DNA from: Coriobacteriia bacterium
GTDB taxonomy: Bacteria > Actinomycetota > Coriobacteriia > WRKU01 > WQUG01
Length of the DNA stretch: 45,597 nt
Direction: 5' to 3'
Assembly (NCBI GenBank): GCA_009778715.1
Contig: WRFR01000002.1
Location: 1 to 45,597, forward strand
The notes under the pieces were generated by a model. The model had not been told where the DNA came from and did no database searches. It saw only the letters and a program-made list of their open reading frames with translations. The position numbers and the translations under genes are program-made. Below, piece after piece: positions 9,015 through 33,138 of the stretch (position 1 is its first letter; the number at the start of each line of letters is the position of its first letter).

Positions 9015-9026
9015 CAGCGGCGGTTC

Positions 9027-13620: not shown

Positions 13621-15291
13621 TTATACTTCGATCATGACCGGGATCACCATCGGGCGGCGTTTCGTCGTTTCCCATACCAGTTGCGACGCACTGTCGCGGA
13701 TACTTTTGCGCAGGTTGCCGAGCGATGCATGCTCGCGCGTGGCGCGTCCCACGGTCTTCTTTGCGCGATCCAGGAGTTCTTTTTCCAGGTCGCGCCCCTC
13801 GGGGAACACCACACCGCGCGCGACGATCTCAGACTGGCCGACAACGCTTCCCTGCCGGCGGTTGACGGTCAGCACCAGCGTGATGATGCCGTCCTGGGAC
13901 AGGTGTTGCCGGTCACGGATCACCACCTGGTCACTGTCGCCAACATTGAGCCCGTCGACGTAGATGACGCCGTTGGTCACCTGCTCGGGCGCGATACGCG
14001 CGCCTTCCTCAGTAAACTCAAGCACGTCCCCGTTATCGAGTACGAAGATATAGTTCTCAGGAATACCCACCGCCAGCGCAAGTTCCTTATGCGCGACCAA
14101 GTGGCGCGTCTCTCCGTGGACCGGGACGAAGTACTCCGGCTTGATGAGGTTGAGCATGAGTTTCAATTCTTCTGCTGAGGCATGTCCCGAGACATGAACT
14201 TCCGCGCGGTTCTTGTCATAAACGTCGGCGCCGATCTTCATCAAGCGATTGATGACCGTCCCCACAGCCTTCTCGTTGCCCGGGACCGGTGATGCAGAAA
14301 GGATAATGGTATCGTCCGCATCGATCGATATCGTTCGATGCTCGCCCATCGCCATGCGCGCCAGCGCAGAGAGCGGCTCTCCCTGACTGCCAGTGCACAT
14401 GACCACAACGTCTTTCGGACTTAGGTTCTTCATCTCGTAAGCGTCGACCAGATCCTCTTCCTTGATGCTGAGATACCCCAGATCACGCGCGATCTTGACA
14501 TTCTGCAACATCGAACGTCCGGTAATCACGACTTTGCGATGCGCGGCGACGGCGGCGTCGGCCACCTGCTGCAGGCGATGAATGTGGCTCGCAAACGACG
14601 CGACGATCACCGAGCCTTTTGCCTGCGCAATGATGCGGCTCAACGCTTTGCCTACCACCGCTTCGCTGCGTGTAATGTCAGCGTACTCGGCATTGGTGGA
14701 GTCACTCATCAGCAACATGACCCCCTGGCGCCCCAGTTTAGCCAAGGCAGCGTAGTCGGTCAGGCGCCCGTCGATAGGAGTCTGGTCGAACTTGAAGTCT
14801 CCGGTATGAAGCACGTTGCCCACCGGTGTTCGCACGCAAACGGCGATAGCATCAGGGATCGAGTGGTTGACCGCGATGAAATCGAGCCCGAAGACTCCCC
14901 GGCTCATGTGCATACCGTCCTTGACCTCATGGTATCTAACCTTCTTGATACCATGTTCGTCAAGCTTTCCTTTGATAAGGCCCAGCGTCAGCTTCGTTGC
15001 GATGATTGGCACCGATCGATCGAGCTCTTTCAGCAAATAGGGCAAGGCGCCCGTATGGTCTTCATGGCCATGAGTCACGACGATCCCGCGCAGTTTGTCC
15101 GCATTGTCGATCAAATAGGAATAGTCCGGCAGGATCAGGTCAATGCCGGGATGATCGTCATCAGGAAACATCAGCCCCGCATCGATCACGATCATATCGT
15201 TGCCATACTCGAGTACCGTCATGTTCTTGCCGATACCATCGAGTCCTCCCAGCGGGATGACCCGAAGCGCTTTTTTGTTGTCTTGCGTCAT
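13621..15291 (-). CDS. rnj: Ribonuclease J
   Basis: 556-residue RNase J, a 5'-3' exo- and endoribonuclease of mRNA decay. The metallo-beta-lactamase site THGHEDHTG (residues 73-81) is intact, preceded by IVIDAGLMFPDDDHPGIDLI. Then VGNVLHTGDFKFDQTP, the beta-CASP region (SDSTNAEYADITRSE, CTGSQGEPLSALARM), and SGHASAEELKLMLNLIKPEYFVPVHGE. A C-terminal domain ends at VIPVMIEV. The ATG is four bases past the dapA stop, an association seen in many Gram-positive bacteria. Confidence 0.95.
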   Translation of the reverse strand: MTQDNKKALRVIPLGGLDGIGKNMTVLEYGNDMIVIDAGLMFPDDDHPGIDLILPDYSYLIDNADKLRGIVVTHGHEDHTGALPYLLKELDRSVPIIATKLTLGLIKGKLDEHGIKKVRYHEVKDGMHMSRGVFGLDFIAVNHSIPDAIAVCVRTPVGNVLHTGDFKFDQTPIDGRLTDYAALAKLGRQGVMLLMSDSTNAEYADITRSEAVVGKALSRIIAQAKGSVIVASFASHIHRLQQVADAAVAAHRKVVITGRSMLQNVKIARDLGYLSIKEEDLVDAYEMKNLSPKDVVVMCTGSQGEPLSALARMAMGEHRTISIDADDTIILSASPVPGNEKAVGTVINRLMKIGADVYDKNRAEVHVSGHASAEELKLMLNLIKPEYFVPVHGETRHLVAHKELALAVGIPENYIFVLDNGDVLEFTEEGARIAPEQVTNGVIYVDGLNVGDSDQVVIRDRQHLSQDGIITLVLTVNRRQGSVVGQSEIVARGVVFPEGRDLEKELLDRAKKTVGRATREHASLGNLRKSIRDSASQLVWETTKRRPMVIPVMIEV

Positions 15292-15295
15292 AACG

Positions 15296-16213
15296 TCAGC
15301 AGTAGTCCCTTTCCTTCAGCTTTGAATTCACGGAGTCCCGCACCTCACGCAGAGCATTGATCTGCTCGGCAGTAGCCTCTATAAGCGGCAGGCGCAGTCC
15401 TCCGACGTCGAATCCCTCCATCCGCAAAGCAGCTTTGACCATAATGGGATTAGAGGTCATGAACAGCGCTTTGTGCAACGGCGTCAGTATCGCGTTTATC
15501 TCCTCGGCCGTATGCAGGTCGCCCGCGACATAGGCGTCGATCATTCTCATTAAGGGAGCGGCAGCAACATGGGCCGTCACCGAGATGACCCCGCTGCCCC
15601 CATGTTTCATCATCTCAAGCGTCAGGTCATCGTCGCCGGACAGGACTTCAAAGCCCTTCGGTGTCTGCGCCAGGATGGCGTCGACCTGGGTAAGGTCACT
15701 GTTAGCCTGTTTGACCGCTACGATATTGGGGGCGTCGGTCGCCAGGCGTACGATCGTATCAGGCTCAATGTTAATGACACAGCGCCCGGGGATGTTGTAT
15801 AGAACGACCGGGATGTCTGGAACCGCCTCGGCTACCGCCCGGAAGTGGCGATAGAGGCCCTCCTGAGGTGGCTTGTTGTAATAGGGCGTGACCACCAGTA
15901 AGCCTTCAAATCCGAGTTGAGCGACCTTTTGTGCAAAGGCGACGCTATCCTCGGTACAGTTGTCGCCGACATTGGCGACCAGCGGCACCTGGCCCCCTAC
16001 CGCGTCGCGGATCGCGGCAAAAAGTTCCATGCGCTCTGGACGCGATATCGTGGGTGATTCCCCGGTCGTGCCATTGATGATCAGGCCCTCGCTTCCCTGC
16101 TCAACCAGGCGGCGCGCAAGCTGGCCCGCGCGCGGCAGATCGAGACGGAGATCAGGGGTGAAAGGCGTCACCATAGCAGTGAGCAAACGACCGAAACGTG
16201 GATGCTGTGACAT
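15296..16213 (-). CDS. dapA: 4-hydroxy-tetrahydrodipicolinate synthase
   Basis: 305-residue DapA, condensing pyruvate with aspartate semialdehyde on the lysine/diaminopimelate path. Typical motifs: RLLTAMVTPF, GTTGESPTIS, VTPYYNKPPQEGLYRHF with the catalytic Tyr, LYNIPGRCVINI, and the Schiff-base Lys in IVAVKQANSDL. Strong ribosome site AAAGGAG before ATG 16213. It lies with lysC and dapB, separated from lysC by a reductase-like gene. Confidence 0.96.
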   Translation of the reverse strand: MSQHPRFGRLLTAMVTPFTPDLRLDLPRAGQLARRLVEQGSEGLIINGTTGESPTISRPERMELFAAIRDAVGGQVPLVANVGDNCTEDSVAFAQKVAQLGFEGLLVVTPYYNKPPQEGLYRHFRAVAEAVPDIPVVLYNIPGRCVINIEPDTIVRLATDAPNIVAVKQANSDLTQVDAILAQTPKGFEVLSGDDDLTLEMMKHGGSGVISVTAHVAAAPLMRMIDAYVAGDLHTAEEINAILTPLHKALFMTSNPIMVKAALRMEGFDVGGLRLPLIEATAEQINALREVRDSVNSKLKERDYC

Positions 16214-20247: not shown

Positions 20248-20419
20248 TGCTCTTTACCTCCGCTTTTCCACAGGAGTCGCTATACGGGCAGCCCATGCAG
20301 CCTATCGATTTCTTGCGTTTATGCTGCTTTATTATCGCACGCAGGGCCAGGCCTGCCACAAACAGCACCACAAGCGTCAGGCTTATGTTGAGGACCCAGG
20401 CCCCCACGGCGTGGCTCAT
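20219..20419 (-). CDS. FeoB-associated Cys-rich membrane protein
   Basis: 66 residues: a transmembrane helix at about 7-28 (AWVLNISLTLVVLFVAGLAL), a basic turn (KQHKRKK), and a Cys cluster at 41, 44, 50, 60 and 64 (GCMGCPYSDSCGK...DCQKNC). This is the small protein often found after feoB; its role in ferrous iron uptake is undefined but Fe-S or metal binding is plausible. Its ATG overlaps the feoB stop (ATGA). The start codon also lies at the edge of a palindromic repeat copy. Confidence 0.88.
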   Translation of the reverse strand: MSHAVGAWVLNISLTLVVLFVAGLALRAIIKQHKRKKSIGCMGCPYSDSCGKAEVKSIDCQKNCTR

Positions 20420-22620
20420 GACAAAACCACCCCAGGGGTAGTTTTGTCTTCCGGGGCCTTTGACGCAGGACGCAGCAACGCGAACAGCATCCCCGCCAGC
20501 ACCACAACCGCAGCTATCGTGCCCACGCCAAAGCGTCCCGTCACCATCAGCATGCCAAACTGATAGATCATGAGCGCGACCGCATAGGACCAGCTCAGCT
20601 GGTAGGCCAGAGTAAAGAGCGCCCAACTGCGTGACTTCATCTCGCTTATCATCGTCGAGACAGCCACCACACAAGGGATGCAAAGCAAGTTGAAAGCCAT
20701 AAACGCATAGCCCGCCACCTTCTGCCCCCCAAAGAGCGCCAGCACCGACGGCGCACTTGTGCGCACACCCTGCCCTGAGGTCAGGATACCGATGACCGAT
20801 ACGATCTGCTCCTTAGCGGTAAAGCCTAAAAGCGAGGCGATCGTTGCCCGCCAGTTCCCAAAACCGAGCGGTATAAACACCCAGGCGAACAAGTCCCCGA
20901 TATGTGCGACCAGGCTGTGATCAAGGCTGCTCACCATCACAAAGCTGCCTCCCTCGAAGCCAAAGCGCGAGAGAAACCAGACCGCGATGCTCAGCAGTAA
21001 AATGATCGTGAACGCCTTTTTAACAAACGAGGAGATGCGATCCCAGACGCTGAGGGCGACATTGCGCGCGGTCGGCCAGTGATAAGCCGGCAGCTCCAGC
21101 ACGAAGGGCGAAATCTTGGACTTGAAGCGCTTGAGCTTCTTCAGGATCAGGCCGGAAAGCACCACTGAAGTAATGCCGAGGAAGTAGGCCGAGGGCGCAA
21201 CCCACCACACGCCGCCGAAGACTACTCCCGCGATCAGAGCGATCAACGGCAGCTTGGCAGAACAAGGCATGAACGTCGCCGTAAGTATCGTCATGCGGCG
21301 CTCGCTCTCCTGCTCGATCGTGCGCGCCGACATGATGGCAGGCACGCCGCAACCCGTCGATATCAGCAGCGGGATGAAGCTGCGCCCCGACATACCAAAG
21401 CGGCGAAACACGCGATCCAGCAAGAACGCAATACGCGACATGTAGCCGCAGTCTTCCAGCAGCGCGAGCAGCAGGAAGAGCACGATCATCTGCGGTATGA
21501 AGCTGATAACAGCTCCCACGCCGCCGATGATGCCGTCAACGATCAGGGAGCGTAGCCAGACTGCCGCGCCGCCGCGTGTCAGCGCGCTCATGAGCGGCTC
21601 CTGGATCCAGTGGCCGATGAAGGTGTGATTCATAAAGCCGGTGACGATCCCGCCCACCAGCGTCACCGACACGTAGTAGATCGCAAATATCAGCACGACA
21701 AAAAGCGGCAGCCCAAACAGGCGATGCGTGACCACGGCGTCGATCTTTTCTGACGTTGTCCGCTCTTCGACGGTTCGGTTGACGGTGCGCGCTATGACCC
21801 GCTCTACGAAGTCATAGCTTTCTCCCGTGATGATGGAGGGCGCCGTGTCGTCGAGCTGCGCCTCGCAGCCCGCTACGATGCCCTCGATCTGGCCGAGCAG
21901 CGCGCGATGCGCCGTATAATCCTCCTGCCGTTTATGTTCGGCGTCCAGTGCCGCGCCTGCCCAGATACGCTCATCGCGCTCGAAAAACTTTATCGCGTAC
22001 CAGCGCAGATGCTCGGGGGGCACTGCCCCATAGATGATCTTTGCGATCTTTGCGAGCGCGTCCTCGACGCGATAGGAGAACTTGCGGTTGAAAAACGGAG
22101 GTATCCCCTCGTCAGCGGCCTCGAAAGCCTGCTGCAGGAGCTGCTGCAACCCCGTCCCACGCAAAGCCGAAATCTCGACGACCGGTACGCCCAATTCAGA
22201 ACTGAGCCCTTCGATGTCAACCTCGTCACCGTGCTTGCGGACCAGATCCATCATGTTCAGCGCGATAACCTGCGGGACGCCGATATCAAGGAGTTGGGTG
22301 GAGAGGTAGAGATTGCGCTCGATATTAGTGGCGTCAATGATGTTGATGATAACGTCAGGCTCCTCGATGACCAGGTAGTCGCGAGTCACGACCTCTTCAG
22401 AGGTGTAGGGCGCAAGCGAGTAGACTCCGGGCAGGTCGATCACCGTTGCCTCACGGCCCCCCTGGCGAGCCCGTCCTTCCTTCTTGTCGACCGTTACCCC
22501 AGGCCAGTTGCCGACATGTTGCGACGAGCCGGTTAGCGCATTAAAAAGGGTAGTTTTGCCGCTATTGGGGTTTCCGACCAGCGCGATCTTGAGCGGGGTG
22601 TCCGAGGAATGCGCCATCAT
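20416..22620 (-). CDS. feoB: Ferrous iron transporter FeoB
   Basis: 734-residue FeoB. N-terminal G domain: LVGNPNSGKTTLFNALTG (G1), WPGVTVDKKEG (G2), DLPGVYSL (G3), LNMMD (G4), then a helical GDI-like region and the membrane part with gate motifs (GCGVPAIMSARTIEQESERR, MPCSAKLPLIALIAG). I chose ATG 22620 (MMAHSSDTPLKIALVG), 14 bases after feoA; the upstream open frame overlaps feoA. The last ten residues (DKTTPGVVLS) are encoded by a palindromic repeat copy. Probably iron-repressed through the DtxR-type regulator next door. Confidence 0.96.
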   Translation of the reverse strand: MMAHSSDTPLKIALVGNPNSGKTTLFNALTGSSQHVGNWPGVTVDKKEGRARQGGREATVIDLPGVYSLAPYTSEEVVTRDYLVIEEPDVIINIIDATNIERNLYLSTQLLDIGVPQVIALNMMDLVRKHGDEVDIEGLSSELGVPVVEISALRGTGLQQLLQQAFEAADEGIPPFFNRKFSYRVEDALAKIAKIIYGAVPPEHLRWYAIKFFERDERIWAGAALDAEHKRQEDYTAHRALLGQIEGIVAGCEAQLDDTAPSIITGESYDFVERVIARTVNRTVEERTTSEKIDAVVTHRLFGLPLFVVLIFAIYYVSVTLVGGIVTGFMNHTFIGHWIQEPLMSALTRGGAAVWLRSLIVDGIIGGVGAVISFIPQMIVLFLLLALLEDCGYMSRIAFLLDRVFRRFGMSGRSFIPLLISTGCGVPAIMSARTIEQESERRMTILTATFMPCSAKLPLIALIAGVVFGGVWWVAPSAYFLGITSVVLSGLILKKLKRFKSKISPFVLELPAYHWPTARNVALSVWDRISSFVKKAFTIILLLSIAVWFLSRFGFEGGSFVMVSSLDHSLVAHIGDLFAWVFIPLGFGNWRATIASLLGFTAKEQIVSVIGILTSGQGVRTSAPSVLALFGGQKVAGYAFMAFNLLCIPCVVAVSTMISEMKSRSWALFTLAYQLSWSYAVALMIYQFGMLMVTGRFGVGTIAAVVVLAGMLFALLRPASKAPEDKTTPGVVLS
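20419..20448. repeat. Palindromic element, single-arm copy at feoB 3' end
   Basis: Dyad GACAAAAC (20420-20427) ... GTTTTGTC (20441-20448) with inner CCCC-A-GGGG; 13 of 14 arm positions pair. It shares the TGACAAAA outer arms and reading frame (DK...VLS) with the copies in carA and pyrD, but its core is CCACCCC/GGGGT instead of GGGTCAGG. Membership in the same family is therefore likely but not certain. Confidence 0.65.
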
Positions 22621-22633
22621 CGATCCGCGGCCC

Positions 22634-22855
22634 TCACTGCACTTCGACCAGTGCTGCGTCCGCCTTGCGCAGTGACAATTGATAGCCCCGGACTTTGACC
22701 TCGATCGGGTCGCCAAGCGGCGCGGTCTTGCGCACCTTCACCAGGCAGCCCTTTGTGATGCCCATGTCCATGATCCGACGCTGCAAGGCGCCCGCGCCCT
22801 GCACGCGCAGGACTCGTGCGCTCCCACCCACTGGTATGTCTTTAAGTGTCCGCAT
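22634..22855 (-). CDS. feoA: Ferrous iron transport protein FeoA
   Basis: 73-residue SH3-like FeoA: LKDIPVGGSARVLRVQGAGALQRRI..MGITKGCLVKVRKTAPLGDPIEVKVRGYQLSLRKADA is the standard family pattern (shown here in pieces). It is thought to assist FeoB at the inner face of the membrane. Follows two dyad operators and precedes feoB by 13 bases. Confidence 0.95.
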   Translation of the reverse strand: MRTLKDIPVGGSARVLRVQGAGALQRRIMDMGITKGCLVKVRKTAPLGDPIEVKVRGYQLSLRKADAALVEVQ

Positions 22856-22871
22856 ACGCTCCCAATACGAG

Positions 22872-22889
22872 AGTTAGCCGTTGCTAACT
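22872..22889. promoter_or_regulatory. Candidate DtxR-type operator, feoA-proximal
   Basis: Perfect dyad AGTTAGC-CGTT-GCTAACT in the feoA leader. The GTTAGC half-site matches the core of the DtxR/IdeR box (TTAGGTTAGCCTAACCTAA). Lies just downstream of the proposed feoA start of transcription. Confidence 0.65.
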
Positions 22890-22903
22890 GATTACTTCTA
22901 TAT

Positions 22904-22935
22904 TTGAGTTTGCCACGGCTAACTCAAGAAGTCAA
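22904..22935 (-). promoter_or_regulatory. feoA promoter overlapped by a second DtxR-type operator
   Basis: Minus-strand promoter: TTGACT (22930-22935), 17-base spacer, CAAACT (22907-22912). The dyad TTGAGTT-AGCC/GGC-AAACTCAA (22904-22927, 11 of 12 arm positions pairing) covers the spacer and -10, so a bound repressor would block initiation. It repeats the GAGTTAGCC motif of the proximal site. Confidence 0.7.
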
Positions 22936-22966
22936 GAGGATTTACATGACACCCGGGTTACATTTT

Positions 22967-23326
22967 TTATTCGATGTGGGATTTGATCTGGGAGAAGGTC
23001 TTGTTGCTGATGACATGCTCGATGCGGCAGGCGTCATCGGCTGCTGTCTTCTTATCGACGCCAAGCGACTCCAGGAACTTCGTCAGAGTCACATGGCGAT
23101 CATAAACGGACGCAGCTTTCTTTTTGCCTCGAGCGGTCAGTTTGATGGACCCATCGGGGCTCATCGTAAGATAGCCAGCGACTTTGAGGTTCGACATCGC
23201 GCGGCTCACGCTCGGTTTCGTCACTTTGAGATACGTCGCCACATCGACCGAATGGACCGCCTCGGCCTGCTCCCCCAGCACGAGGATGGCTTCAAGATAC
23301 ATCTCTCCTGATTCCTGTAACTTCAT
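22967..23326 (-). CDS. DtxR family iron-dependent transcriptional regulator
   Basis: 119-residue two-domain form (no SH3 domain). Winged helix at about 25-60 (SVDVATYLKVTKPSVSRAMS), dimerisation/metal domain after it. Metal ligands match the DtxR iron pattern: Met9 in GEMYLEAI, His78 in YDRH, and Cys100-Glu103-His104 in DACRIEHVIS; MntR has Glu instead of the Cys. That favours iron over manganese. It sits directly upstream of feoA, whose leader has two matching dyads, so it is very likely the repressor of feoAB. An extended -10 box places the transcript start on the ATG (see promoter). Confidence 0.92.
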   Translation of the reverse strand: MKLQESGEMYLEAILVLGEQAEAVHSVDVATYLKVTKPSVSRAMSNLKVAGYLTMSPDGSIKLTARGKKKAASVYDRHVTLTKFLESLGVDKKTAADDACRIEHVISNKTFSQIKSHIE

Positions 23327-23419: not shown

Positions 23420-24316
23420 TTAAGATTTGGACTGGGCGGGTTGAGTGCGCCTGCGGCCTACCAGGAACAACACTAGTACCCCAGCAGCCACTGACGCGAC
23501 CAGTACCCCTATCAAGAGGGGGATGCTGTCGCCAGTCTTTGGCATATCGCCCGGATAATGAGGGCTGACATAAGTGTTCTTCAGATTGTAGTCCTTCACC
23601 GTGTGGGTGTAATGAGGAACATTAGCCTCATCAACGGAATAGTGGATGGGGCGCCCAGACGCATCGTTTGCTGGCAGTAACACGGACCATTTCCAGCCAC
23701 CTGCCGCGGTCACCGTGATTGTTTTGACGGTTGTGTTGCCGTTCTTGATAAGGACAGAAATGCTTCCCGGGCGATCATTGGAGGGCGCGGCGCCATAGTC
23801 CCAGGTCTTTGTGCCCGCTACTTCTACCTTACCCTTCGGCGTCGGCGCCTGATAACCCGGGTCTACCTCGACGTAGGGAACTTTGTCTCCGTCGGCCAGC
23901 TGCACGATGACAAGCGGCGTCTGATCATTCGTGATATAGAACGTTATAGTGTAGACTTCCGGGTCATTGGTATATCCAGCTCGCACGGGCGTGACGCACT
24001 TCAACTGATAGCTATAGACCCCCACCTTGGAAAAATAAATCGGACCAAGCGGTACCGTGCTATTGCCGGTGATCGCGAAGGTATAGCCGCTCGCATCACT
24101 GCCTGCAGGCAGGGGATTTGACGGGTCGTCAGGGATCAGTCGGTAGGAAAAGGTCTCATCGATATTGGGAGTTGAAGTGTGATTGAAGAACACCTGCTTC
24201 ACATCCAGCGTGGCGTCATGAGTATCAAGCGCATAGGCGGCAGGGGCAAATATGACGCCGACCAGGCAGGCCAGGGCCACACATGCCAGGAAAGTTCTCA
24301 GCATATGATCTCTCAT
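23420..24316 (-). CDS. Minor pilin / basal pilus anchor (FctB-like)
   Basis: 298 residues: signal peptide (MRDHMLRTFLACVALACLVG..PAAYA), a Spy0128/FctA-type isopeptide pilin domain (about residues 25-150: VKQVFFNHTS, DETFSYRLIP, GVYSYQLKCV), a Cna_B-like domain (VEVAGTKTWDYG, RPGSISVLIKNG, KWSVLLPANDA, HYSVDEANVP), then the sorting motif MPKTG (258-262), a hydrophobic helix and a basic tail. I chose ATG 24316, with GAGGG upstream; a GTG at 24352 directly abuts the sortase stop. Last gene of the pilus island, in the position of FctB in streptococcal FCT islands. Anchoring to the cell wall is inferred. Confidence 0.82.
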   Translation of the reverse strand: MRDHMLRTFLACVALACLVGVIFAPAAYALDTHDATLDVKQVFFNHTSTPNIDETFSYRLIPDDPSNPLPAGSDASGYTFAITGNSTVPLGPIYFSKVGVYSYQLKCVTPVRAGYTNDPEVYTITFYITNDQTPLVIVQLADGDKVPYVEVDPGYQAPTPKGKVEVAGTKTWDYGAAPSNDRPGSISVLIKNGNTTVKTITVTAAGGWKWSVLLPANDASGRPIHYSVDEANVPHYTHTVKDYNLKNTYVSPHYPGDMPKTGDSIPLLIGVLVASVAAGVLVLFLVGRRRTQPAQSKS

Positions 24317-24352
24317 ACGCAAGATCCCTCTATCAGAAACTATCCTGTTCAC

Positions 24353-25321
24353 CTATTCGTCTCCCTTGTGAGTATCCTCAGCGTGCGCTTCTTTTGGACG
24401 CTTCTTCTTTTTGATGATCAGTACGATCAACAGCAGCACCAGCAAAAACGGCAATGCGATGATCACGATCTTGACTGGCAATGGCGCCGCATCCCAGAGA
24501 TCCAAAAGGGAGTCCAGCGCAGGGATTCCGGTACCCCGATTCCCTGCAGAACCCCCAAAGGGGTCAGCGGGAACCTTGTCGGTAATCTTTGCCAGAAGGA
24601 TGTCGCGTCCGTTGGTTGTCGTCTCCGAGCAGGTTGAAAGCAGCACGATATGGTCATCCGGCGTGACCGGTACATCGCTGCGGGTATATTTCGCCTCACT
24701 CTTCAGCAGGTCGAGATAAGCTTGCTGCGCGTCGCGGCCGGTGATCTTGGTGCGATATACTGCATCATCATAAGCGTCGACATGAATGAACTCGAAAAAT
24801 TCCAGGCCATGTTCCTTGCCGTCAAAGTACAGAACCCCGTATTTGCGGGCGTTGAAGTAGCTTTGATTCGCGAACAGCCCGATCTCTCCAAACATTGTGT
24901 CCTCGTCCATGTGGTGGCCATAGATGATTGATGAGAAGTCACTGAAATCCGGGCTGCAGCCGGCATCCAGGAAGAGCGAGCCTGAGAGAGAGTACTTCCC
25001 CGTCGCGTCCGTGTTGATGTACTTCAGATTATTTGTGCTTTGCGCTACCGGGTAATCGATGTGCGTCCCATAGACCGTCAGCCAGGAGATCACCTCCGGG
25101 TTAATGGCCTGCAGCTCCTTAAACGAGAGCCCCCCGTTCTTATCCGTGGGCTTGTAGGCTGCGTACTGGGTCGAAGACGCCACCGCGTAGACCTGATGGG
25201 AGTCCCAGAGGGCGTAGCCGCCAAAAACCAGCAGCAGCATGATAACGACCATGATCGCCAGGTTGACAGTGCTGCTCGTCAGTGCAACTGCTTTTATGCC
25301 GATTTTCTTCGCTGCGTCCAT
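24353..25321 (-). CDS. Class B sortase, pilus polymerase type
   Basis: 322 residues: N-terminal membrane helix (19-39), the extracellular sortase fold, and a C-terminal helix (about 285-306, IVIIALPFLLVLLLIVLII) with a basic tail. Catalytic His136 in IIYGHHMDEDTMFG, Cys231 in VLLSTCSET and Arg239 in NGRDILLAK. The sequence between (VLYFDGKEHGLEFFEF, VTPDDHIVLLSTC) is class B, like the pilin sortase of FCT-3 islands (SrtC2/Spy0129), whose substrates carry xxPTG motifs. Between the major and minor pilin genes with a GAGGAGG ribosome site. The second membrane helix is more typical of pilin-polymerising sortases. Confidence 0.92.
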   Translation of the reverse strand: MDAAKKIGIKAVALTSSTVNLAIMVVIMLLLVFGGYALWDSHQVYAVASSTQYAAYKPTDKNGGLSFKELQAINPEVISWLTVYGTHIDYPVAQSTNNLKYINTDATGKYSLSGSLFLDAGCSPDFSDFSSIIYGHHMDEDTMFGEIGLFANQSYFNARKYGVLYFDGKEHGLEFFEFIHVDAYDDAVYRTKITGRDAQQAYLDLLKSEAKYTRSDVPVTPDDHIVLLSTCSETTTNGRDILLAKITDKVPADPFGGSAGNRGTGIPALDSLLDLWDAAPLPVKIVIIALPFLLVLLLIVLIIKKKKRPKEAHAEDTHKGDE

Positions 25322-25396
25322 CTGGGCCTCCTCTCCTCAGTATCAAGCTCAAAATATGGTTGGAATGAACCTCTCCCAGAGGAGAGGCGTCACATC

Positions 25397-26758
25397 CTAG
25401 TGGTTATAACTGTTCCGTTTGCGGGACTTCGTCACGACGTAGACCACCACAGCGCCAACAGCCAAAACAATCAGGCCGATATAGGGCAGGTTGTTGATGA
25501 GCAGGCCTGTCGGGGTGATGTCGGGCAGGTTATTGGTATAGTCTGCGGTGTTAGCGCTCTCGCTGACAAGATAGGCGCCCGTGCTGAGGCTACTGCCTGC
25601 AGCGGCGTTAGTGTTACCCGTCTTCGGAGCGCCCGCTGTGTCATTCGCGGTGACAGCCACGGACGGAACGTAGCTGGGTGTGCCCGTCTCGTTTGCGGTG
25701 AAGGTCGTGCCGACCGGCGTGTCGAGGAATACAAGCTTCTGCCCATTTTGAAGGCTGTAGCTGAATTGCGCGCCAGACGTGATGGTGATCAGCCCGGTTG
25801 TAGTGCTGAATGTGGCTCCCGAAATGCTGTTCGGGGTCGGATCGGTGATGATCGCGCCGCTCGCATCGAGGATGTAGGCCTGATAAGTTGGGGCCGTCGC
25901 GGTAAACGGAACCGGGCTCGCCGTCGTTACTGACGAGGCTGGAAGATTGCCGCTGGGGTCATAGGACACATCCGGTGCTGTCACGGTCATAGTATAAGGG
26001 AAGTACTTGGTCAGGTCTGCATACGAACCAGTTACCGTCTTGCTAACTTCAAGGTTCGGGTTGGTAATCGTACCCTGGTGAGTGCGCATGAAGGTGTTTG
26101 TAAAGACCATTCCATGCTCACCAAGGCTTGGGTCGACCTTATAGTCAGTCTTCTGATTGCTGTTGTCGATCGTGGTCACCACATCACTGACCGCCTGGAT
26201 GTACAGGCCGCCATTGCCGTCGTTAGCGACGAAGGCATAGAGCTTATATGACGCGGGTGAATAAACCATGACTTCCCCCGTGGCTGTCGTATAGGTACCC
26301 GCAGTCTCAGTGATGGTGTACACGTAGATGCCCGCATGCGGGAAGTTCACGCCAGCAAAGATGTTACCGGTCTCCTGCGTGTAGGTTGCTGTGTTGGTAT
26401 CAGCAGTCGCTGCCGTACCGCCCGGATAGGCGACGCTGAACTGGTTTCCGCTATTGAGCACCGGCGGCTTGACGGAGGTATCGCCATCAACGCTTTCCGG
26501 CGTCGCCGTAAACTTGAAGGTCGCGGTAGGGGCGGTCGTGCCGACCGGCATCTGCAGCACCTTCGTGATGTAGGCCGTCACCGAAGTGCCCGGCGTGTCG
26601 GATACGATGGCGCCTACGCCACCAGCGGCGATAACGGGGTCACCCGTTGTGCCGTTTTCGCCATTGGGCGCCTGCGCCGCAAAGGCAGACGAAATGCTCG
26701 CGAAGCACAGCGCAAACGTAAGCATGATCGCCACGAATAGTTTCTTTTTCTTGATCAT
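25397..26758 (-). CDS. Major pilin (FctA/Spy0128-like)
   Basis: 453 residues: signal peptide to about residue 27 (LFVAIMLTFALCFASISSAFA), a Spy0128-type pilin domain at about 58-230 (VTAYITKVLQMP with a candidate isopeptide Lys, FNFPHAG-like VNFPHAGIYVYTITETAG with the Glu partner, YKLYAFVANDG), a second isopeptide-type domain from about 237 (LEVSKTVTGSYADLTKYFPY), then the sorting motif ITPTG (414-418), hydrophobic helix and KSRKR tail. ITPTG fits the xxPTG type (EVPTG in S. pyogenes FctA) used by class B pilin sortases. Strong ribosome site GAGGAGG. Likely the polymerising shaft subunit. Confidence 0.88.
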   Translation of the reverse strand: MIKKKKLFVAIMLTFALCFASISSAFAAQAPNGENGTTGDPVIAAGGVGAIVSDTPGTSVTAYITKVLQMPVGTTAPTATFKFTATPESVDGDTSVKPPVLNSGNQFSVAYPGGTAATADTNTATYTQETGNIFAGVNFPHAGIYVYTITETAGTYTTATGEVMVYSPASYKLYAFVANDGNGGLYIQAVSDVVTTIDNSNQKTDYKVDPSLGEHGMVFTNTFMRTHQGTITNPNLEVSKTVTGSYADLTKYFPYTMTVTAPDVSYDPSGNLPASSVTTASPVPFTATAPTYQAYILDASGAIITDPTPNSISGATFSTTTGLITITSGAQFSYSLQNGQKLVFLDTPVGTTFTANETGTPSYVPSVAVTANDTAGAPKTGNTNAAAGSSLSTGAYLVSESANTADYTNNLPDITPTGLLINNLPYIGLIVLAVGAVVVYVVTKSRKRNSYNH

Positions 26759-26799
26759 TTTGAGCCTCCTCTAAGGTTTCTTTCTTTCCCCTATATTCA

Positions 26800-26860
26800 C
26801 ATGGACTCGGTCCATGAATTTTTTCAAAGCCTTGGCAAAACGTCCCCTTTGCAACGTTTG
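26800..26860 (-). other. Hairpins in the sipA-fctA spacer
   Basis: Two dyads in the 116-base spacer: CATGGAC-TCG-GTCCATG (26800-26816) and GGCAAA(A)CGT ... ACGTTTGCC (about 26834-26860). No U-run follows in the sense direction. They could stabilise the abundant pilin mRNA by marking a processed 5' end ahead of fctA. Confidence 0.45.
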
Positions 26861-26874
26861 CCGTCGTTGCCACA

Positions 26875-27399
26875 TTAAAAGTTTCGTCGCCTGATGAGCG
26901 TAATCACGGTTCCTAAGGTGTCCTTCGTGTTCACCGGGCCATAGACGCGGCTATCCGTCGCATTCCCCCTCGCGTCCCCTAAGACAAACACCTGGCCTGG
27001 GCCCACCGTGAGAGGAAACGAAACCCCCTTCGCATACCTCACGGTCTTCTGGTAAATGTTTGGCTCCTGTTGGAGCGCCCCGTTGACCACCAGTCCTTCG
27101 TCGGTGATGTCGACCGCATCTCCTGCGCCAGCAACGACGCGGCGGACCTCCTGCTTGCCGTGATAGCGCACGACCGTGAGGTCATCGACGGCGTAGGTCT
27201 TGTCCAGTCGATAGAACATCACCAGGTCGCCATCTTTTACCATCGGGGCCATGTCAGGATCTGTGTTGCGGTCGAGTCCATAAAAAAACGTGAAGACTAA
27301 GACGAACACCAGCACGACTACCAAGATCTTGAGTCCGAGCGAGGCGAGATCGCGCAAGACCGAAGGTCCAGCGGACCCTTGCGGTTTATCTTGCGCCAT
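26875..27399 (-). CDS. SipA-like pilus assembly factor (signal peptidase I homologue lacking catalytic dyad)
   Basis: 174 residues with the signal peptidase I fold: N-terminal membrane helix (24-40), DMAPMVKDGDLVMFYRL (box B), EVRRVVAGAGDAVDI (box D) and VFVLGDARGNATDSR (box E). In active enzymes box B has Ser before Met-x-Pro and box D has Lys-Arg; here those positions are Asp49 and Arg86, so the Ser-Lys dyad is missing. In S. pyogenes FCT islands SipA likewise has an Asp in place of the Ser, is not a peptidase in the usual sense and is needed for pilus assembly. Position between adhesin and major pilin matches SipA. It overlaps the adhesin end by 14 bases. ATG has AGGGG upstream. Confidence 0.88.
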   Translation of the reverse strand: MAQDKPQGSAGPSVLRDLASLGLKILVVVLVFVLVFTFFYGLDRNTDPDMAPMVKDGDLVMFYRLDKTYAVDDLTVVRYHGKQEVRRVVAGAGDAVDITDEGLVVNGALQQEPNIYQKTVRYAKGVSFPLTVGPGQVFVLGDARGNATDSRVYGPVNTKDTLGTVITLIRRRNF

Positions 27400-30300
27400 G
27401 TTCCCCTCCCCTCTTGCGGTGGTTGGCGACAGCTGTGCCGGTAATGAGCACCATCGCGAGCATGACCACAGTCGACAGTTCGGGTAGTAGTGCCTCGATC
27501 TTGCCAGCCCCTAATCCACTGAGTACCACGGGGGCGCGCCTGTTAGTGAAGTCGAACTCCTGGTCAGGCGACAGCGTGACGCTACCGGTATCATTGCCCA
27601 CGACCGGCGTTGTGGTCGTAGCAGCGCTGTTCAGATAGGATACACGGTAGTGAGCACTCGGATCCGGCGCTTCAACGATCTCAACGGTGCTGCCCAATGA
27701 TACGTCTTGCAACGTGATACTCTGTCCATGCGAGAGATTAAACGTTGCCGCGCCACCACTGTCAAAGTGCAGCGTGCCGTCGTCCGGAGGCGTCGCACCA
27801 GTGCCAGCAATAACTCCGCCTGTATAGGCGAAATCACCCGTCACCGGCGTGCCCGTTGAATCTTTCAGCAGGGCGGTAAAGGTGAACTCCCTGGTCAGGT
27901 CAGCAAGATCGCCCACGACCGTCTTTGATATGGTCAAGGTCGTAGTGCCCAGCTTGTAGTCATTGGTGAAATACGCTTTATAGACCGAGTAGGCAGAGCT
28001 CGTGTCGAACTGAACCGACAGGCGTGGATCGCTTGACCCGGCGGCTATCGTCGTCTCATTAGAGTTGAGGACGCCGGTCACTCCCTGAGAAGTGGTCGCC
28101 GCGAGAGTATAGTTGGTGATATCGCTCGTAGCGAGCTCCTTGATCGTATAGCGCGCCGGAATATTGAGCGCGACCGGATCCCCGTTTTTGTCAAGGAATT
28201 GCATAGAGCCATCGAAGCTGTCATCAGCCAGGGTGACCGTAGTAGTTGCGACGAGGCTACCCAGGTCGTCATAAAGGCCAAAGGTTGCTGAATAGCTGTC
28301 GGGCATGTCCGCAGCAGCGACGCCGGTGACTACCTTGTCGACGACAAGGCCTTGAGTAACGTAATAGAGCTGCAGGACCTGATTAGCTGTCGTAAGTTTG
28401 AAACTCGTGGCTCCATTCAAGCTCTTTCCGGCAGAAAGGTACTGTTCTGTCACGGGATCCCACGTCGTCGACATGGTCTTCTGCAGAGTATAGGTCGGAT
28501 TTGTGTCATACCCCGAGAACAAGGCAGCCATTTCGGTATTGGTGGTCACTGCACCCGAAGGATCGGTGATCGTGCCGTTGGCGTTAATGATCGTACCGAA
28601 GGCGCTCCGATCTTGCCAAGATGTCGTCTGCAGTTTGCCGTTCACGTAATACTCGATCTTGTAGGGGAGATCGGCGTTGAACTCAACGTCATCGAGCAAG
28701 TTGCCCACCGCCGCAGCGCCTGTCGGGGAATAACCTACAATACTCACAAAGAAGAACCGCACCACATAGACACCTGCAGGGACCGTATACTGCCCGGTAT
28801 AGTTCTCGCCCCCATTGCCGCTGTTCCAAGCCGTGTTGTTATCAGAGATCGTCGTTACCATCGTGCTTTTATCAGCAGTCTGGGTAATTGCTTCAGCCTG
28901 AGCTGACGTGATATTTACCGGCACCTGGCTGGTAGGCATGATGACCACGTTCATCACATCGTTGATCGTTGCGCTATTGCGTCCCCGGTGGGCCAGGCTC
29001 CAGTACAGCGTCGAGCCAGGAACAACCAGCACGTCCTGATAGAGTGTAGAATCACTGTTCGCGTTGAGCTCCGCGAAGTATTGGCTGTCGGGAGAGGCTG
29101 AGTCAAACGTTAGGCCCCCTGGCTGGCCCGGTTTGAAGTATCTTCCCCAGATCTCAACCATCCGGTCATCCTCAGTCGTATGCCAACCAGGAACCTTGGT
29201 CTCAGCAACGATCGCTGAGGTCCCGTTGCCAGCAGCAAGAGAAGTCCCCGGTGTGACGCCGGCCGTGTTGTCCTCGAAGCTGCCATTTACCAGCCGCGAA
29301 TTATAGGGCACCTGATAAGGATCCGAGGTATAAGTTGAGTCATCACTTAAGGTCGCCGTCACCTGGTAGAACATCTGCGCGCCGCCATCCACGGCAACGT
29401 TGATGCTTGCCCCGTCGTTTTCAAGGGCGTCAGGATCCACCGGGACATAGGTGCCGTTCGCCGTGGCACATTTTGTCCAGGTGTAGCTCACAACATCCGG
29501 ACTTAAGGCGGGACTGAGCACCGCATTTAAGAGGCCGTCCTGCACGATGGTATCTTTGATCCCGATATTCGGGTTTGGCGTGTTCACTGTAATGTTTACG
29601 GTCAGCGTTATCGACGTGGTAGCACCGCTGGAATACCGATTGTCATACTTGATTATGATCTGGGTATTCTGCGTGAAATTGATATTTAGAAACGGCGCGG
29701 TCGAGCCACCAAGCGTGCTGATAGCAAACGGTGAGCTGGGCAATTGTTCCACGCCATCTTTTGTGACGCTGGTAAACGCCAGGTTCTGATTAGTGGAGCT
29801 TAAGTTGAATGAATGCACCTCGCCTGGATAGGTCGAGGTCACCGTACCGGCGTAGGTGGCGTTTGCCCCCGTTGCCGCACGCTGGTAAGCAATGAGGCCG
29901 TCATCCAGGTAGATACTCCATTGGCTCACGCTGATGACCGTCACTGCATAGGTGGAGAAATGCTGAACGTCAAACGAAACACCGGTATCTGTCACGTTTA
30001 CCGGCGTGCTCAGGGTCTCAGGCTGTTGATCTTCTGGAATATAGAGCAGCGCCAGGTCCTTATTCTGTAAGCCAGCAGGAATATCGGGAAGATCGAAGCT
30101 AACCGTCAGGGGCTTGTCGAAATCGAACTTCGTCCCATCGGCCTGATAGACCGTAACGTCATAAGCCGCCAGTACATCCTCATTTTGCAGGCAGGTGGAA
30201 TCCACCGGATACGCCGTCGCATATCCGCCGATGGGCAAGTCGCCGCTCACCCGGACCGTCTTTCCAGAAACAAGATTTGTAAGGCCCGCATCACTGTACA

Positions 30301-30559
30301 CCGACGCAATAAATACCTGATTTGCCAAGCCGTCAGTATTCGAGGTATTCGAGGTAGCTGCACTGCTTTGGTCAGCAGTGGTAGTTGGAGAACTTGCTGC
30401 ATCCGTTGGTGGAGTTTTCTGGGTGCTCGTCTCTATCGAAGGTTCAGGCGTACTCGCAGGGCTTGCGGACGCATAAGATCCGGGGGACAGGGCAGGCAGG
30501 ATGAGCGCCGATATCACCAGCGCTGCTATTACTGCTTTATATTTGACCCACTTTTGCAC
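27386..30559 (-). CDS. Large pilus tip adhesin-like surface protein
   Basis: 1057 residues, first gene of the pilus island. Signal peptide (AVIAALVISALILPALSPGSYAS), a Ser/Thr/Pro-rich linker, a beta domain (SVYSDAGLTNLVSGKTVRVS ... VSFDVQHFSTYAV), an Ig-like stretch, then at about 425-625 a galactose-binding-like domain (LVNGSFEDN, VPGWHTTEDDRMVEIWGRYF, YFAELNANSDSTLYQDV, LYWSLAHRGR) as in secreted carbohydrate binders. Two isopeptide/Cna_B-like repeats follow (VVDKVVTGVAAADMPDSYSA; TISKTVVGDLADLTREFTFT). The C-terminus has a hydrophobic helix and RKRGGEHGAR tail but no clear LPXTG; VLSGLG (about 1012) is the best candidate. GTG start with AGGGGAAG upstream. Position equals Cpa of FCT islands; no thioester domain recognised. 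Confidence 0.8.
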   Translation of the reverse strand: MQKWVKYKAVIAALVISALILPALSPGSYASASPASTPEPSIETSTQKTPPTDAASSPTTTADQSSAATSNTSNTDGLANQVFIASVYSDAGLTNLVSGKTVRVSGDLPIGGYATAYPVDSTCLQNEDVLAAYDVTVYQADGTKFDFDKPLTVSFDLPDIPAGLQNKDLALLYIPEDQQPETLSTPVNVTDTGVSFDVQHFSTYAVTVISVSQWSIYLDDGLIAYQRAATGANATYAGTVTSTYPGEVHSFNLSSTNQNLAFTSVTKDGVEQLPSSPFAISTLGGSTAPFLNINFTQNTQIIIKYDNRYSSGATTSITLTVNITVNTPNPNIGIKDTIVQDGLLNAVLSPALSPDVVSYTWTKCATANGTYVPVDPDALENDGASINVAVDGGAQMFYQVTATLSDDSTYTSDPYQVPYNSRLVNGSFEDNTAGVTPGTSLAAGNGTSAIVAETKVPGWHTTEDDRMVEIWGRYFKPGQPGGLTFDSASPDSQYFAELNANSDSTLYQDVLVVPGSTLYWSLAHRGRNSATINDVMNVVIMPTSQVPVNITSAQAEAITQTADKSTMVTTISDNNTAWNSGNGGENYTGQYTVPAGVYVVRFFFVSIVGYSPTGAAAVGNLLDDVEFNADLPYKIEYYVNGKLQTTSWQDRSAFGTIINANGTITDPSGAVTTNTEMAALFSGYDTNPTYTLQKTMSTTWDPVTEQYLSAGKSLNGATSFKLTTANQVLQLYYVTQGLVVDKVVTGVAAADMPDSYSATFGLYDDLGSLVATTTVTLADDSFDGSMQFLDKNGDPVALNIPARYTIKELATSDITNYTLAATTSQGVTGVLNSNETTIAAGSSDPRLSVQFDTSSAYSVYKAYFTNDYKLGTTTLTISKTVVGDLADLTREFTFTALLKDSTGTPVTGDFAYTGGVIAGTGATPPDDGTLHFDSGGAATFNLSHGQSITLQDVSLGSTVEIVEAPDPSAHYRVSYLNSAATTTTPVVGNDTGSVTLSPDQEFDFTNRRAPVVLSGLGAGKIEALLPELSTVVMLAMVLITGTAVANHRKRGGEHGAR

Positions 30560-30813
30560 TATTCTTCCCCTGCACTTTACAAAAATTTTATGTAAAAACC
30601 TCCAGTAAAAGTATATCAGATTCCTCGTAATTGTTACTGTTACCTAACAATATACAAATCAACAATTTCACGACTCAAATGTATAAATTTGTTAATATAA
30701 AATCGCTTGTTTATTCATTTCTGAATAAACATATGCGAGCGCATCGGTCAAGTTATTACCATTCTGTTACAAAAGGGTTTTCCGGCGACACATAATGGTT
30801 TATTTTTATGAAA
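30560..30813 (-). promoter_or_regulatory. AT-rich promoter region of the pilus island
   Basis: The 356-base gap between the adhesin start and pnp is much richer in A+T than its surroundings. On the minus strand it holds an extended -10 TGA-TATACT (TATACT at 30610-30615) with only a poor -35 (GTAACA, 30632-30637), giving a leader of about 45 bases. Upstream is a perfect dyad GTTTATTCA-TTTC-TGAATAAAC (30709-30730), a candidate operator. TTGTTA/TAACAA (30631-30650) is a weaker dyad over the -35. No regulator gene of the RofA/Nra type lies alongside. Confidence 0.6.
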
Positions 30814-30841
30814 AACCTGCCCCTCAGTCGAGGGGCAGGTT
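30809..30841 (-). terminator. Intrinsic terminator after pnp
   Basis: Perfect 12-bp stem AACCTGCCCCTC (30814-30825)/GAGGGGCAGGTT (30830-30841) with a 4-base loop; read on the minus strand it runs into a short U-run. It isolates pnp from the pilus island. A weaker U-rich side exists on the plus strand. Confidence 0.85.
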
Positions 30842-30915: not shown

Positions 30916-33138
30916 TTAGTGGTGACGGCGGGGCCTGCGATCGTCTCCGCCTCCATGGTCGTCACGGCGCGGACGGTTGCGATCGTAACCGCCTCCGTTG
31001 CCACGACCCCCACGGTCATCACGTCCACCGCCCTGGCCACCCGTCCAGCTGCCCTCAGGAGCATCTGGCTTGTTCAGGCGATCCAGCGAGACCTTGCCGT
31101 TGTCGTCGACTTCCAGTACGACCACGTCGACCTCATCGCCGATGGCCAGGACATCCTCAACCTTGCCGATGCGCCCATTGGCCATGCGTGAGATATGCAG
31201 CAGGCCGTCCTTGCCCGGCGTCAACTCGATGAAGGCGCCAAAGCTCTGGATACCCACGACCTTGCCGTGATACTCCTCGCCGACTTCCGGATCCTTGACG
31301 ATCATGTTGATACGACGCGCGGCTTCTTCCCCACCCAGGTCCTTGGACCCGATGAAGATGACGCCGTCCTCCTGGATATCGATCGACGCGCCGGTCTCCT
31401 CCTGGATAGCGCGGATCACTTTGCCGCCGCTGCCAATGACCTCGCGGATCTTGTCGACCGGGATCTTGATCGTTATAACGCGCGGCGCAAACTCGGAGAG
31501 CTCTTCGCGCGGACGGGGCAGCGCTTCGAGCATCTTGCCAAGAATGTGAGCGCGGCCAGCTTTTGCCTGCTCGATGGCACGGGTCAGGATCTCAAGCGAG
31601 AGGCCTTTGGCCTTGTTGTCCATCTGCAGGGCGGTAATGCCCTTCTCAGTGCCAGCGACCTTGAAGTCCATGTCACCGAGAAAGTCCTCCAGCCCCTGGA
31701 TGTCAGAGAGTACCGCGACGCGATCGCCCTCCTTGATAAGTCCCATCGCAATGCCGGATACCGGAGAGGAGATGGGCACGCCGGCGTCCATAAGCGCAAG
31801 CGTTGAACCACAGACTGAGGCCATTGAGGACGAGCCGTTGCTCTCCAGTACCTCGGAGACCACGCGGATCGCGTAGGGGAAGTCCTCGCGTGTCGGCAGC
31901 ATCGGACGCAGCGCGCGCTCTGCCAGGGCCCCATGGCCGATCGCGCGGCGATTGGGGCCGCGCATGAAACCGGTCTCGCCAGTCGCAAACGGCGGGAAGT
32001 TGTAGTGATGGATATAGTACTTGCCCTCGCAGGGGTCGATCGTATCAAGGCGCTGCCACTCGCTCAGCATACCGAGCGCCGCTATGGAGAGCACCTGGGT
32101 CTGACCGCGCGTAAACAGGCCATCGCCATGACTGCGCGGCAGGAAACCGGCCACACAGGTGATCGGGCGAATCTCTTCGAGGCTGCGGCCATCGGCACGC
32201 TCGCCCTCATCGAGCACCATGGCGCGCATGGTCTTCTTCTCAAGTTTCTTGAGGGCTTCTTTGATCTTCTGTGCCCACTCAGCGCGCTCTTCTTCCGTGA
32301 AGAGCTCCGTGAGCTCAGCCTTGACGGCGTCGACATCGGCCATACGGGAGAGTTTGTCCGCGTTATGCAGGGCGGCATACATCTTCTGCTCGCCTGTCTC
32401 AGAGATGCGCTCCATGATCCATTCAGGCATTTCATCAAGCTCAAAGACCAGCGGGGTTGGCGCCACGGCAGCGACCAGGCGCTCCTGGGCCGCGCAGAAC
32501 TCACCGAGGGCTTCCTGCGCAAACATCATCGCGGCAAGCATGTCCTCTTCGCTGACCTCGTCGGCGCCCGCTTCGATCATGTAGACCGCGTCACGTGAGC
32601 CACCGACTACCAGGTCGAGGTCGCTGGCCTCTTCTTCCTCGAAGGTGGGGTTGACGATGAACTGGCCGTCCTCGCCCCGTGCGATGCGCACGCCGGCGAG
32701 CGGCCCCTCAAACGGGATACCCGCGACCAGCAGTGCTGCCGAAGCTCCCATGATCGAGATCACGTCGGGCTGATTGCTCTGGTCGGCGCCCAGAACGGTG
32801 ACCACTACCTGCACGTCATTGCGGAAGCCGTCGGCAAACGCACTGCGCAGCGGACGGTCGATCATGCGCGCGGTCAAGATGCCCTTTTCAGACGCGCGGC
32901 CCTCGCGCTTCAGAAAGCCGCCGGGAATCTTTCCGGCTGCATACATACGTTCCTCGAAATCGACCGTCAGCGGAAAGAAGTCATAGTCCTTCTTCTCCTT
33001 GCTGGCGGTAGCGGTCACCAACACGACCGTGTCACCCTGGCGCACCAGGCACGAACCGCCGGCCTGGCGGGCCAGCTCGCCCGTCTCAAGCGAATACTCT
33101 TTTCCAAAGAGTTCAAATGTTTCTACTACTTTTGGCAT
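30916..33138 (-). CDS. pnp: Polyribonucleotide nucleotidyltransferase (PNPase)
   Basis: 740-residue 3'-5' phosphorolytic exoribonuclease of the degradosome. Two RNase PH domains (GDTVVLVTATASKEKKDYDF, GGFLKREGRASEKGILTARM in parts; SFMR-like GFMRGPNRRAIGHGALAERA), a KH domain near 569 (IREVIGSGGKVIRAIQEETG) and an S1 domain near 622 (GEEYHGKVVGIQSFGAFIEL). The tail is Gly/Arg/Asp/His-rich (GGGRDDRGGRGNGGGYDRNR), an RGG-like extension that may bind RNA. Good ribosome site GAAGGAAG. It follows rpsO through a structured spacer, the classical rpsO-pnp pairing. Confidence 0.97.
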   Translation of the reverse strand: MPKVVETFELFGKEYSLETGELARQAGGSCLVRQGDTVVLVTATASKEKKDYDFFPLTVDFEERMYAAGKIPGGFLKREGRASEKGILTARMIDRPLRSAFADGFRNDVQVVVTVLGADQSNQPDVISIMGASAALLVAGIPFEGPLAGVRIARGEDGQFIVNPTFEEEEASDLDLVVGGSRDAVYMIEAGADEVSEEDMLAAMMFAQEALGEFCAAQERLVAAVAPTPLVFELDEMPEWIMERISETGEQKMYAALHNADKLSRMADVDAVKAELTELFTEEERAEWAQKIKEALKKLEKKTMRAMVLDEGERADGRSLEEIRPITCVAGFLPRSHGDGLFTRGQTQVLSIAALGMLSEWQRLDTIDPCEGKYYIHHYNFPPFATGETGFMRGPNRRAIGHGALAERALRPMLPTREDFPYAIRVVSEVLESNGSSSMASVCGSTLALMDAGVPISSPVSGIAMGLIKEGDRVAVLSDIQGLEDFLGDMDFKVAGTEKGITALQMDNKAKGLSLEILTRAIEQAKAGRAHILGKMLEALPRPREELSEFAPRVITIKIPVDKIREVIGSGGKVIRAIQEETGASIDIQEDGVIFIGSKDLGGEEAARRINMIVKDPEVGEEYHGKVVGIQSFGAFIELTPGKDGLLHISRMANGRIGKVEDVLAIGDEVDVVVLEVDDNGKVSLDRLNKPDAPEGSWTGGQGGGRDDRGGRGNGGGYDRNRPRRDDHGGGDDRRPRRHH

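What the first reader, a model, noticed from the sequence alone, without database searches (positions are those of the whole stretch)
23420..30559. FCT-3-like sortase pilus island in an actinobacterial-type chromosome
Five adjacent genes encode, in order, a large adhesin, a signal-peptidase homologue, a Spy0128-type pilin, a class B sortase and a second pilin-domain protein with a Cna_B domain. Order and parts match cpa-sipA-fctA-srtC2-fctB of S. pyogenes FCT-3 islands, yet flanking genes (pnp; dtxR-feo) are housekeeping and Actinomycetota-like. Most known actinobacterial pili use class C sortases and no SipA. The A+T-rich upstream region and a terminator isolating it from pnp suggest a cassette acquired as a unit.
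Basis: partly seen in the sequence, partly recalled or inferred. Interest (0 to 1): 0.85.

Follow-up and report, generated by a model that had tools for sequence, protein, structure and literature searches.

The report
SipA–class B sortase pilus, sugar-binding tip
A gut actinobacterium, probably from termites, carries a five-gene kit for covalently linked surface fibres of a kind described so far mainly in streptococci; the fibre probably ends in a sugar-binding head, and a sister species keeps that head at the same chromosomal site but mounts it on an unrelated kind of fibre.

Summary
Observation confirmed: five adjacent minus-strand genes encode adhesin, SipA, FctA/PitB-type pilin, class B sortase and base pilin, between pnp and dtxR-feoAB. 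The sortase passes NCBI's class B cut-off. The pilin matches PitB over its full length, with both isopeptide triads and ITPTG. SipA lacks the signal-peptidase dyad (D/R). So it is an FCT-3/PI-2-type SipA-dependent pilus in Coriobacteriia, and no stray: 47 of 51 relatives with enough flank show sipA-fctA-srtB-fctB, and 35 of 400 Coriobacteriia genomes carry linked SipA+SrtB.

Differences from the streptococcal pili: no thioester or vWA tip, but an unnamed jelly-roll that Foldseek matches to carbohydrate-binding modules (CBM16/61/22); a sortase with a C-terminal transmembrane helix; no FCT regulator nearby.

'Acquired as a unit' is half right. One congener has the island at the same site and GC3 is host-like, so it is not recent. 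In another congener the same slot holds an orthologous adhesin head (41%) whose tail, shaft and polymerase are replaced by SpaA tail, SpaH-type pilin and class C sortase. The adhesin tail (DUF7601) thus travels with the sortase class while the head does not. This exchange is the most novel part, but rests on one genome.

The parts
27386..30559 (-). tip adhesin (1057 aa): signal peptide, N-terminal domains, jelly-roll head, stalk, DUF7601 tail, hydrophobic C-terminus
   Evidence: orthologue in G002 45% identical; head orthologue in G001 41%
28640..29308 (-). adhesin residues 418-640: jelly-roll head domain, no Pfam family
   Evidence: model pLDDT 69, pTM 0.71; Foldseek best hits CBM16/CBM61/CBM22, E 1e-6, TM 0.6-0.68 normalised by target; no Pfam or PDB sequence match
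27389..27952 (-). adhesin residues 870-1057: DUF7601 tail with isopeptide triad candidates K879/E963/N1006, VLSG motif and TM segment; found in adhesins of SrtB loci of several phyla, absent from the G001 orthologue
26875..27399 (-). sipA: signal-peptidase-like pseudoenzyme, dyad positions D49/R86
   Evidence: PDB 4n31 SipA E 1e-18; 0 of 61 homologues keep the catalytic Lys, own SPase I has S/K
25397..26758 (-). major pilin (FctA/PitB type): triads K66/E151/N221 and K240/E357/N409, candidate acceptor K207 in KVDP, sorting signal ITPTG
   Evidence: profile match to 4s3l 2.6e-37 over full length; conservation counts
24353..25321 (-). srtB: class B pilus sortase (H136, C231, R239) with an added C-terminal TM helix near residue 277
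   Evidence: TIGR03064 1.2e-53; PDB 4y4q/3psq; hydropathy
23420..24352 (-). base pilin (FctB-like): FctA domain, Cna_B domain (K182 and partner residues present), MPKTG wall-sorting signal
30814..30841 (-). intrinsic terminator of pnp (12 bp stem, T run), isolating the island
30649..30678 (-). promoter-like TTGAGT-18-TATATT in the A+T-rich leader (consensus match only)
30916..33138 (-). pnp, upstream flank
20416..23326 (-). downstream flank: dtxR 22967-23326, feoA about 22634-22855, feoB 20416-22716

Best explanation
The island encodes a covalent, sortase-assembled pilus of the SipA/class B type. Inferred working: adhesin, major pilin and base pilin are secreted and held in the membrane by their C-terminal signals. 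The class B sortase, aided by the pseudo-signal-peptidase SipA, cleaves the pilin at ITPTG between Thr and Gly and joins the Thr to a lysine of the next pilin (candidate K207 in KVDP), building the shaft. The adhesin, whose DUF7601 tail resembles the second domain of the pilin, is added at the tip. The Cna_B-containing base pilin ends growth and is fixed to the wall through MPKTG, perhaps by another sortase. Internal isopeptide bonds stiffen the subunits. The tip jelly-roll probably binds a polysaccharide of the gut (termite diet, host or microbial glycans). Shown: genes, families, catalytic and isopeptide residues, gene-order conservation, synteny, predicted fold. Inferred: polymerisation, order of subunits, acceptor lysine, ligand.
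For: Family and structure matches for sortase, pilin and SipA. Triad columns conserved in 63-70 of 70 rows, the T and G of the sorting motif in 67 and 70; K207 conserved in 59 of 70. SipA dyad lost in all 61 homologues. sipA-fctA-srtB-fctB order in 47 of 51 loci with room. SipA within 5 kb upstream of SrtB in 35 Coriobacteriia genomes. Orthologous island in a congener with intact frames. Adhesin head matches CBM folds. Experiments in streptococci show that SipA and the class B sortase are needed for polymerisation (PMC4049620, PMC3019223, PMC7900414).
Against: No pilus has been seen in this organism; everything is sequence and prediction. Homology of the base pilin to GAS FctB is weak (3klq E 0.056). 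The adhesin sorting motif VLSG is degenerate. No class A or class E wall-anchoring sortase was found among the five sortases of the assembly, which is 94.7% complete. The head model has moderate confidence (pLDDT 69), and its fold class also includes non-lectin domains.
Confidence: 0.85

Rival explanations
1. The class B sortase anchors iron or haem-uptake surface proteins (isd-like), as its dtxR-feo neighbours might suggest, and the pilin-like proteins are wall-anchored receptors.
For: SrtB of S. aureus serves haem uptake (PMC3019223); dtxR and feoAB lie next door on the same strand.
Against: No NEAT or haem-binding domain; ITPTG/MPKTG instead of NPQTN; pilin matches PitB over full length; SipA is present; the same operon recurs in many other genomes in other neighbourhoods; the DtxR-like boxes lie at feoA, not at the island.
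Confidence: 0.03
2. The proteins are displayed singly or as short heteromers on the wall; no long pilus is made.
For: No experiment exists; the adhesin motif is degenerate; work in L. lactis and S. oralis shows that pilins can sit on the wall as monomers when a part is missing (PMC4049620; PMC3178606).
Against: All assembly parts and motifs are conserved together over dozens of loci.
Confidence: 0.1
3. The island is a recent transfer from termite-gut Bacillota.
For: Sortase tree: Actinomycetota are not one clade (AU p 1.8e-10); labels follow habitat (3 changes, shuffles 15-24) more than phylum (6 changes, shuffles 7-12); lower GC and A+T-rich leader.
Against: GC3 host-like; same site in a congener; a single clade of the 11 termite-type Coriobacteriia sortases is not rejected (p 0.15); the most similar Bacillota record L058 is a 3.3 kb contig that may be misbinned; the habitat result is biased by ranking hits to a query of probable termite origin.
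Confidence: 0.15

Closest known systems
Group A Streptococcus FCT-3 (and FCT-2/-4) pilus: cpa-sipA-fctA-srtC2-fctB
   Same: Gene order; class B pilus sortase; SipA without catalytic dyad; two-domain isopeptide pilin without YPKN, with xPTG; base pilin with LPXTG-like motif; pilus type varies at one locus
   Different: Tip is not a thioester adhesin; sortase has a C-terminal TM helix (reported absent in Spy0129); no Nra/RofA/MsmR regulators nearby; base pilin has an extra Cna_B domain; flanks are pnp and dtxR-feo
Pneumococcal / Mitis-group pilus islet 2: pitA-sipA-pitB-srtG1-srtG2
   Same: Pilin closest to PitB, colinear to the VTPTG motif; SipA; sortase next to the pilin
   Different: No second sortase in the window (16 of the 57 loci with room downstream have one); a base pilin gene is present instead; tip is not vWA
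SpaA/SpaH-type class C sortase pili of Actinomycetota
   Same: Covalent pilus with CnaB-type domains; found in the same genome (contigs C12, C17) and at the same slot in congener G001, with an orthologous adhesin head
   Different: Class C sortase, LPXTG pilin, no SipA

Membership tests
SipA/class B sortase pilus (FCT-3/PI-2 type) | Pilus sortase of class B with catalytic His/Cys/Arg | tested here: met
   TIGR03064 over cut-off; Spy0129 3psq second PDB hit; H136, C231, R239 invariant
SipA/class B sortase pilus (FCT-3/PI-2 type) | SipA: SPase I fold without Ser-Lys dyad, linked to the sortase | tested here: met
   Best PDB match SipA; D49/R86; 0 of 61 homologues keep the Lys
SipA/class B sortase pilus (FCT-3/PI-2 type) | Two-domain major pilin with K/E/N triads, xPTG signal, no YPKN | tested here: met
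   no YPKN in the sequence
SipA/class B sortase pilus (FCT-3/PI-2 type) | Base pilin with wall-sorting signal | tested here: inconclusive
   FctA domain and MPKTG present; homology to FctB structures weak, E 0.056-0.073
SipA/class B sortase pilus (FCT-3/PI-2 type) | Covalent polymer of pilin on the cell surface | not testable with these tools
   Needs expression and blotting or electron microscopy
FCT-3 island of S. pyogenes in the strict sense | Cpa tip with thioester domains | tested here: not met
   No thioester family hit; the two Cys are not conserved in the orthologue; head folds like CBMs
FCT-3 island of S. pyogenes in the strict sense | Nra/RofA and MsmR regulators at the locus | tested here: not met
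   Flanks are pnp/rpsO and dtxR/feoAB
Class C sortase pilus | Class C sortase and LPXTG SpaA/SpaH pilin | tested here: not met
   Only TIGR03064 over cut-off in the window; class C is found at the same slot in G001
Isd-type SrtB haem locus | NEAT-domain substrate with NPQTN motif | tested here: not met
   No such domain or motif

The most novel reading that the evidence does not exclude
The pnp-feo site is a pilus exchange locus in this genus. The sugar-binding tip is kept, while its C-terminal docking domain, the shaft and the polymerase are swapped as a block between two assembly systems (SipA/class B and class C). The tail domain (DUF7601 or SpaA) is what decides which polymerase accepts the tip.
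Probability: 0.45. Interest if true: 0.75.

Novelty: new variant of a known kind. Interest (0 to 1): 0.6.

Why it matters
Papers on SipA plus class B sortase pili describe them from streptococci and ask why they exist (PMC7900414, PMC4049620, PMC3019223). Here the pair is conserved over Clostridia, Enterococcus and Coriobacteriia, with universal loss of the SipA lysine and a conserved KVDP lysine in the pilin, so the co-requirement can be tested by comparison outside pathogens. The sister species that carries an orthologous adhesin head on a class C pilus offers a natural experiment on what lets a tip dock on a given polymerase.

Tried and rejected
The first adhesin model (residues 326-640, 4 rows) was poor, pLDDT 55, and its fold hits are not used; it was replaced by a 15-row jelly-roll model. 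An iron/haem role was considered because of dtxR-feo and rejected. Recent transfer was tested by GC3, synteny and tree and is not supported. Search for a shared operator upstream of the islands: leaders of the window, G002, G001 and the second islands do not align beyond pnp. Literature searches for class B/SipA pili in Coriobacteriia or termite guts gave nothing in the held library, which does not prove absence.
Full report
WHAT IS THERE. Upstream is pnp with its own terminator; downstream are dtxR, feoA and feoB. The window lies in a 1.73 Mb, 48-contig assembly, on a 135 kb contig. That the window itself comes from a termite gut is therefore an inference.

WHAT THE PROTEINS ARE. The sortase is class B: TIGR03064 181.9 bits against a cut-off of 153.75, nearest solved structures 4y4q and the GAS pilus sortase Spy0129 (3psq), with H136, C231 and R239 invariant. 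Unlike Spy0129, which is reported to lack a C-terminal transmembrane region (PMC7900414), it carries a hydrophobic helix after the catalytic domain, as do 74 of the 83 sortases examined. The major pilin aligns colinearly with PitB (4s3l) from residue 34 of the profile to the TPTG motif (E 2.6e-37). In 70 aligned sequences (69 pilins plus PitB) the two Lys/Glu/Asn triads are conserved in 63-70 rows and the T and G of the sorting motif in 67 and 70. A lysine in a KVDP(TPG) motif before the last strand of the first domain is conserved in 59 rows and aligns with a PitB lysine; it is the best candidate for the intermolecular acceptor, by analogy with omega-loop Lys161 of Spy0128 (PMC7900414). SipA has Asp and Arg where signal peptidase has Ser and Lys. 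None of 61 SipA proteins from these loci keeps the Lys (47 Arg, 7 Gly), 17 keep the Ser, and the genome's own signal peptidase I has both. The last protein has an FctA-type domain, a Cna_B domain and MPKTG.

THE ADHESIN. It has no named domain except a DUF7601 tail. Residues 418-640 form an unnamed domain; a profile of it with the preceding domain matches 24 of 400 Coriobacteriia genomes, and it has no Pfam or PDB sequence match. Its model (15 sequences, pLDDT 69, pTM 0.71) matches CBM16, CBM61, a porphyran-binding module and CBM22 at E about 1e-6 and TM 0.6-0.68 on the target. I infer a carbohydrate-binding tip. The thioester domain of Cpa is absent.

HOW COMMON IT IS. A scan of one genome for each of 84,980 species returned 80 loci. 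Of 51 loci with enough DNA on both sides (window and relatives), 47 have sipA-fctA-srtB-fctB. They lie in Oscillospiraceae, Lachnospiraceae, Family XIII, Enterococcus raffinosus, Breznakia, Desulforamulus, Propionibacteriaceae, Bifidobacteriaceae, the named Coriobacteriia species Raoultibacter timonensis and termite-gut Coriobacteriia. Among 400 Coriobacteriia genomes, 41 have a pilus-type sortase above 230 bits (leaving out four with an orphan class B sortase outside any pilus locus). In 35 of these a SipA-type protein (138 bits or more; ordinary signal peptidases score 87 or less) lies within 5 kb upstream on the same strand (counted by me from the two tables). The window's genome holds a second such island on C13, without its own sipA.

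WHERE IT CAME FROM. On the sortase tree the Actinomycetota are not one clade (AU p 1.8e-10). Labels follow habitat closely (termite or not: 3 changes, shuffles 15-24) and phylum weakly (6, shuffles 7-12). This suggests exchange between phyla in the gut, but hits were ranked by similarity to a query of probable termite origin, and some contigs are short and may be misbinned. For the 11 termite-type Coriobacteriia sortases alone, one clade is not rejected (p 0.15). The five genes have host-like GC3, and G002 has the island at the same site, next to pnp and dtxR. The island is therefore an established resident, not a fresh import. Its proteins diverge faster (adhesin 45%, base pilin 62%, pilin 68%, sortase 73%, SipA 76%) than the neighbours (feoB 87%, M16 protease 89%).

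THE SWAP. A third species of the genus, G001 (pnp 91% identical), has between pnp and feoA-feoB, on one 14 kb contig, an adhesin 41% identical to the window's over residues 51-886. Identity ends about where DUF7601 begins (874); instead the protein ends in a SpaA domain and LPLSG. It is followed by a SpaH/EbpB-type LPXTG pilin (9e-72) and a class C sortase (1e-80). No SipA-type protein was found in this 82%-complete genome. Conversely, the DUF7601 tail of the window adhesin is found in about 30 otherwise unrelated adhesins of SrtB/SipA loci in several phyla. The head domain occurs with class B pili (L179, L180), class C sortases (L177) and on a stand-alone wall protein in the window's own genome (L185). 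So heads move freely and tails go with the polymerase. The simplest reading is that the tail is the docking module. One genome shows the swap at the same site, and its direction is unknown.

VERDICT. The 'foreign cassette' idea is replaced by a resident pilus locus whose assembly system differs between sister species. New variant of a known kind.

Noticed in passing
L139 (G001:C30) 3456-8907: Same slot in a congener: orthologous adhesin head with SpaA tail, SpaH-type pilin and class C sortase instead of the SipA/class B set.
   Followed up: yes
L041 (G000:C13) 8456-15649: Second class B pilus island in the same genome with a different adhesin head and no sipA of its own; the assembly holds only one SipA-type gene, so one SipA may serve both islands.
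   Followed up: partly
L059, L073, L081, L086, L087, L088 (gene after srtB): In several relatives the base protein lacks an LPXTG-like signal and ends in one or more hydrophobic segments, as if the pilus were membrane-anchored rather than wall-anchored.
   Followed up: no
window 22872-22889 and 22907-22924: Inverted repeat AGTTAGCCGTTGCTAACT and a near copy between dtxR and feoA, plausibly a DtxR-type operator for feoAB; none was found near the pilus promoter.
   Followed up: partly
L042 (G000:C12) 6896-11853; L043 (G000:C17) 7371-8964: Two class C sortase pilus loci in the same genome; the C17 sortase is 59% identical to the one at the pnp-feo slot of G001.
   Followed up: partly
L051, L052, L053: Orphan class B sortase with long C-terminal extension, each time beside a conserved 305-aa gene (perhaps metA), in other genera of the family.
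   Followed up: no
L186 (G005:C2): Variant pilus locus in the family with order sipA, two ~1800-aa proteins, then fctA; a more distant class B sortase lies further along the contig.
   Followed up: partly
L185 (G000:C22) 5123-7390: The same jelly-roll head domain on a stand-alone LPKTG surface protein in the window's genome.
   Followed up: no
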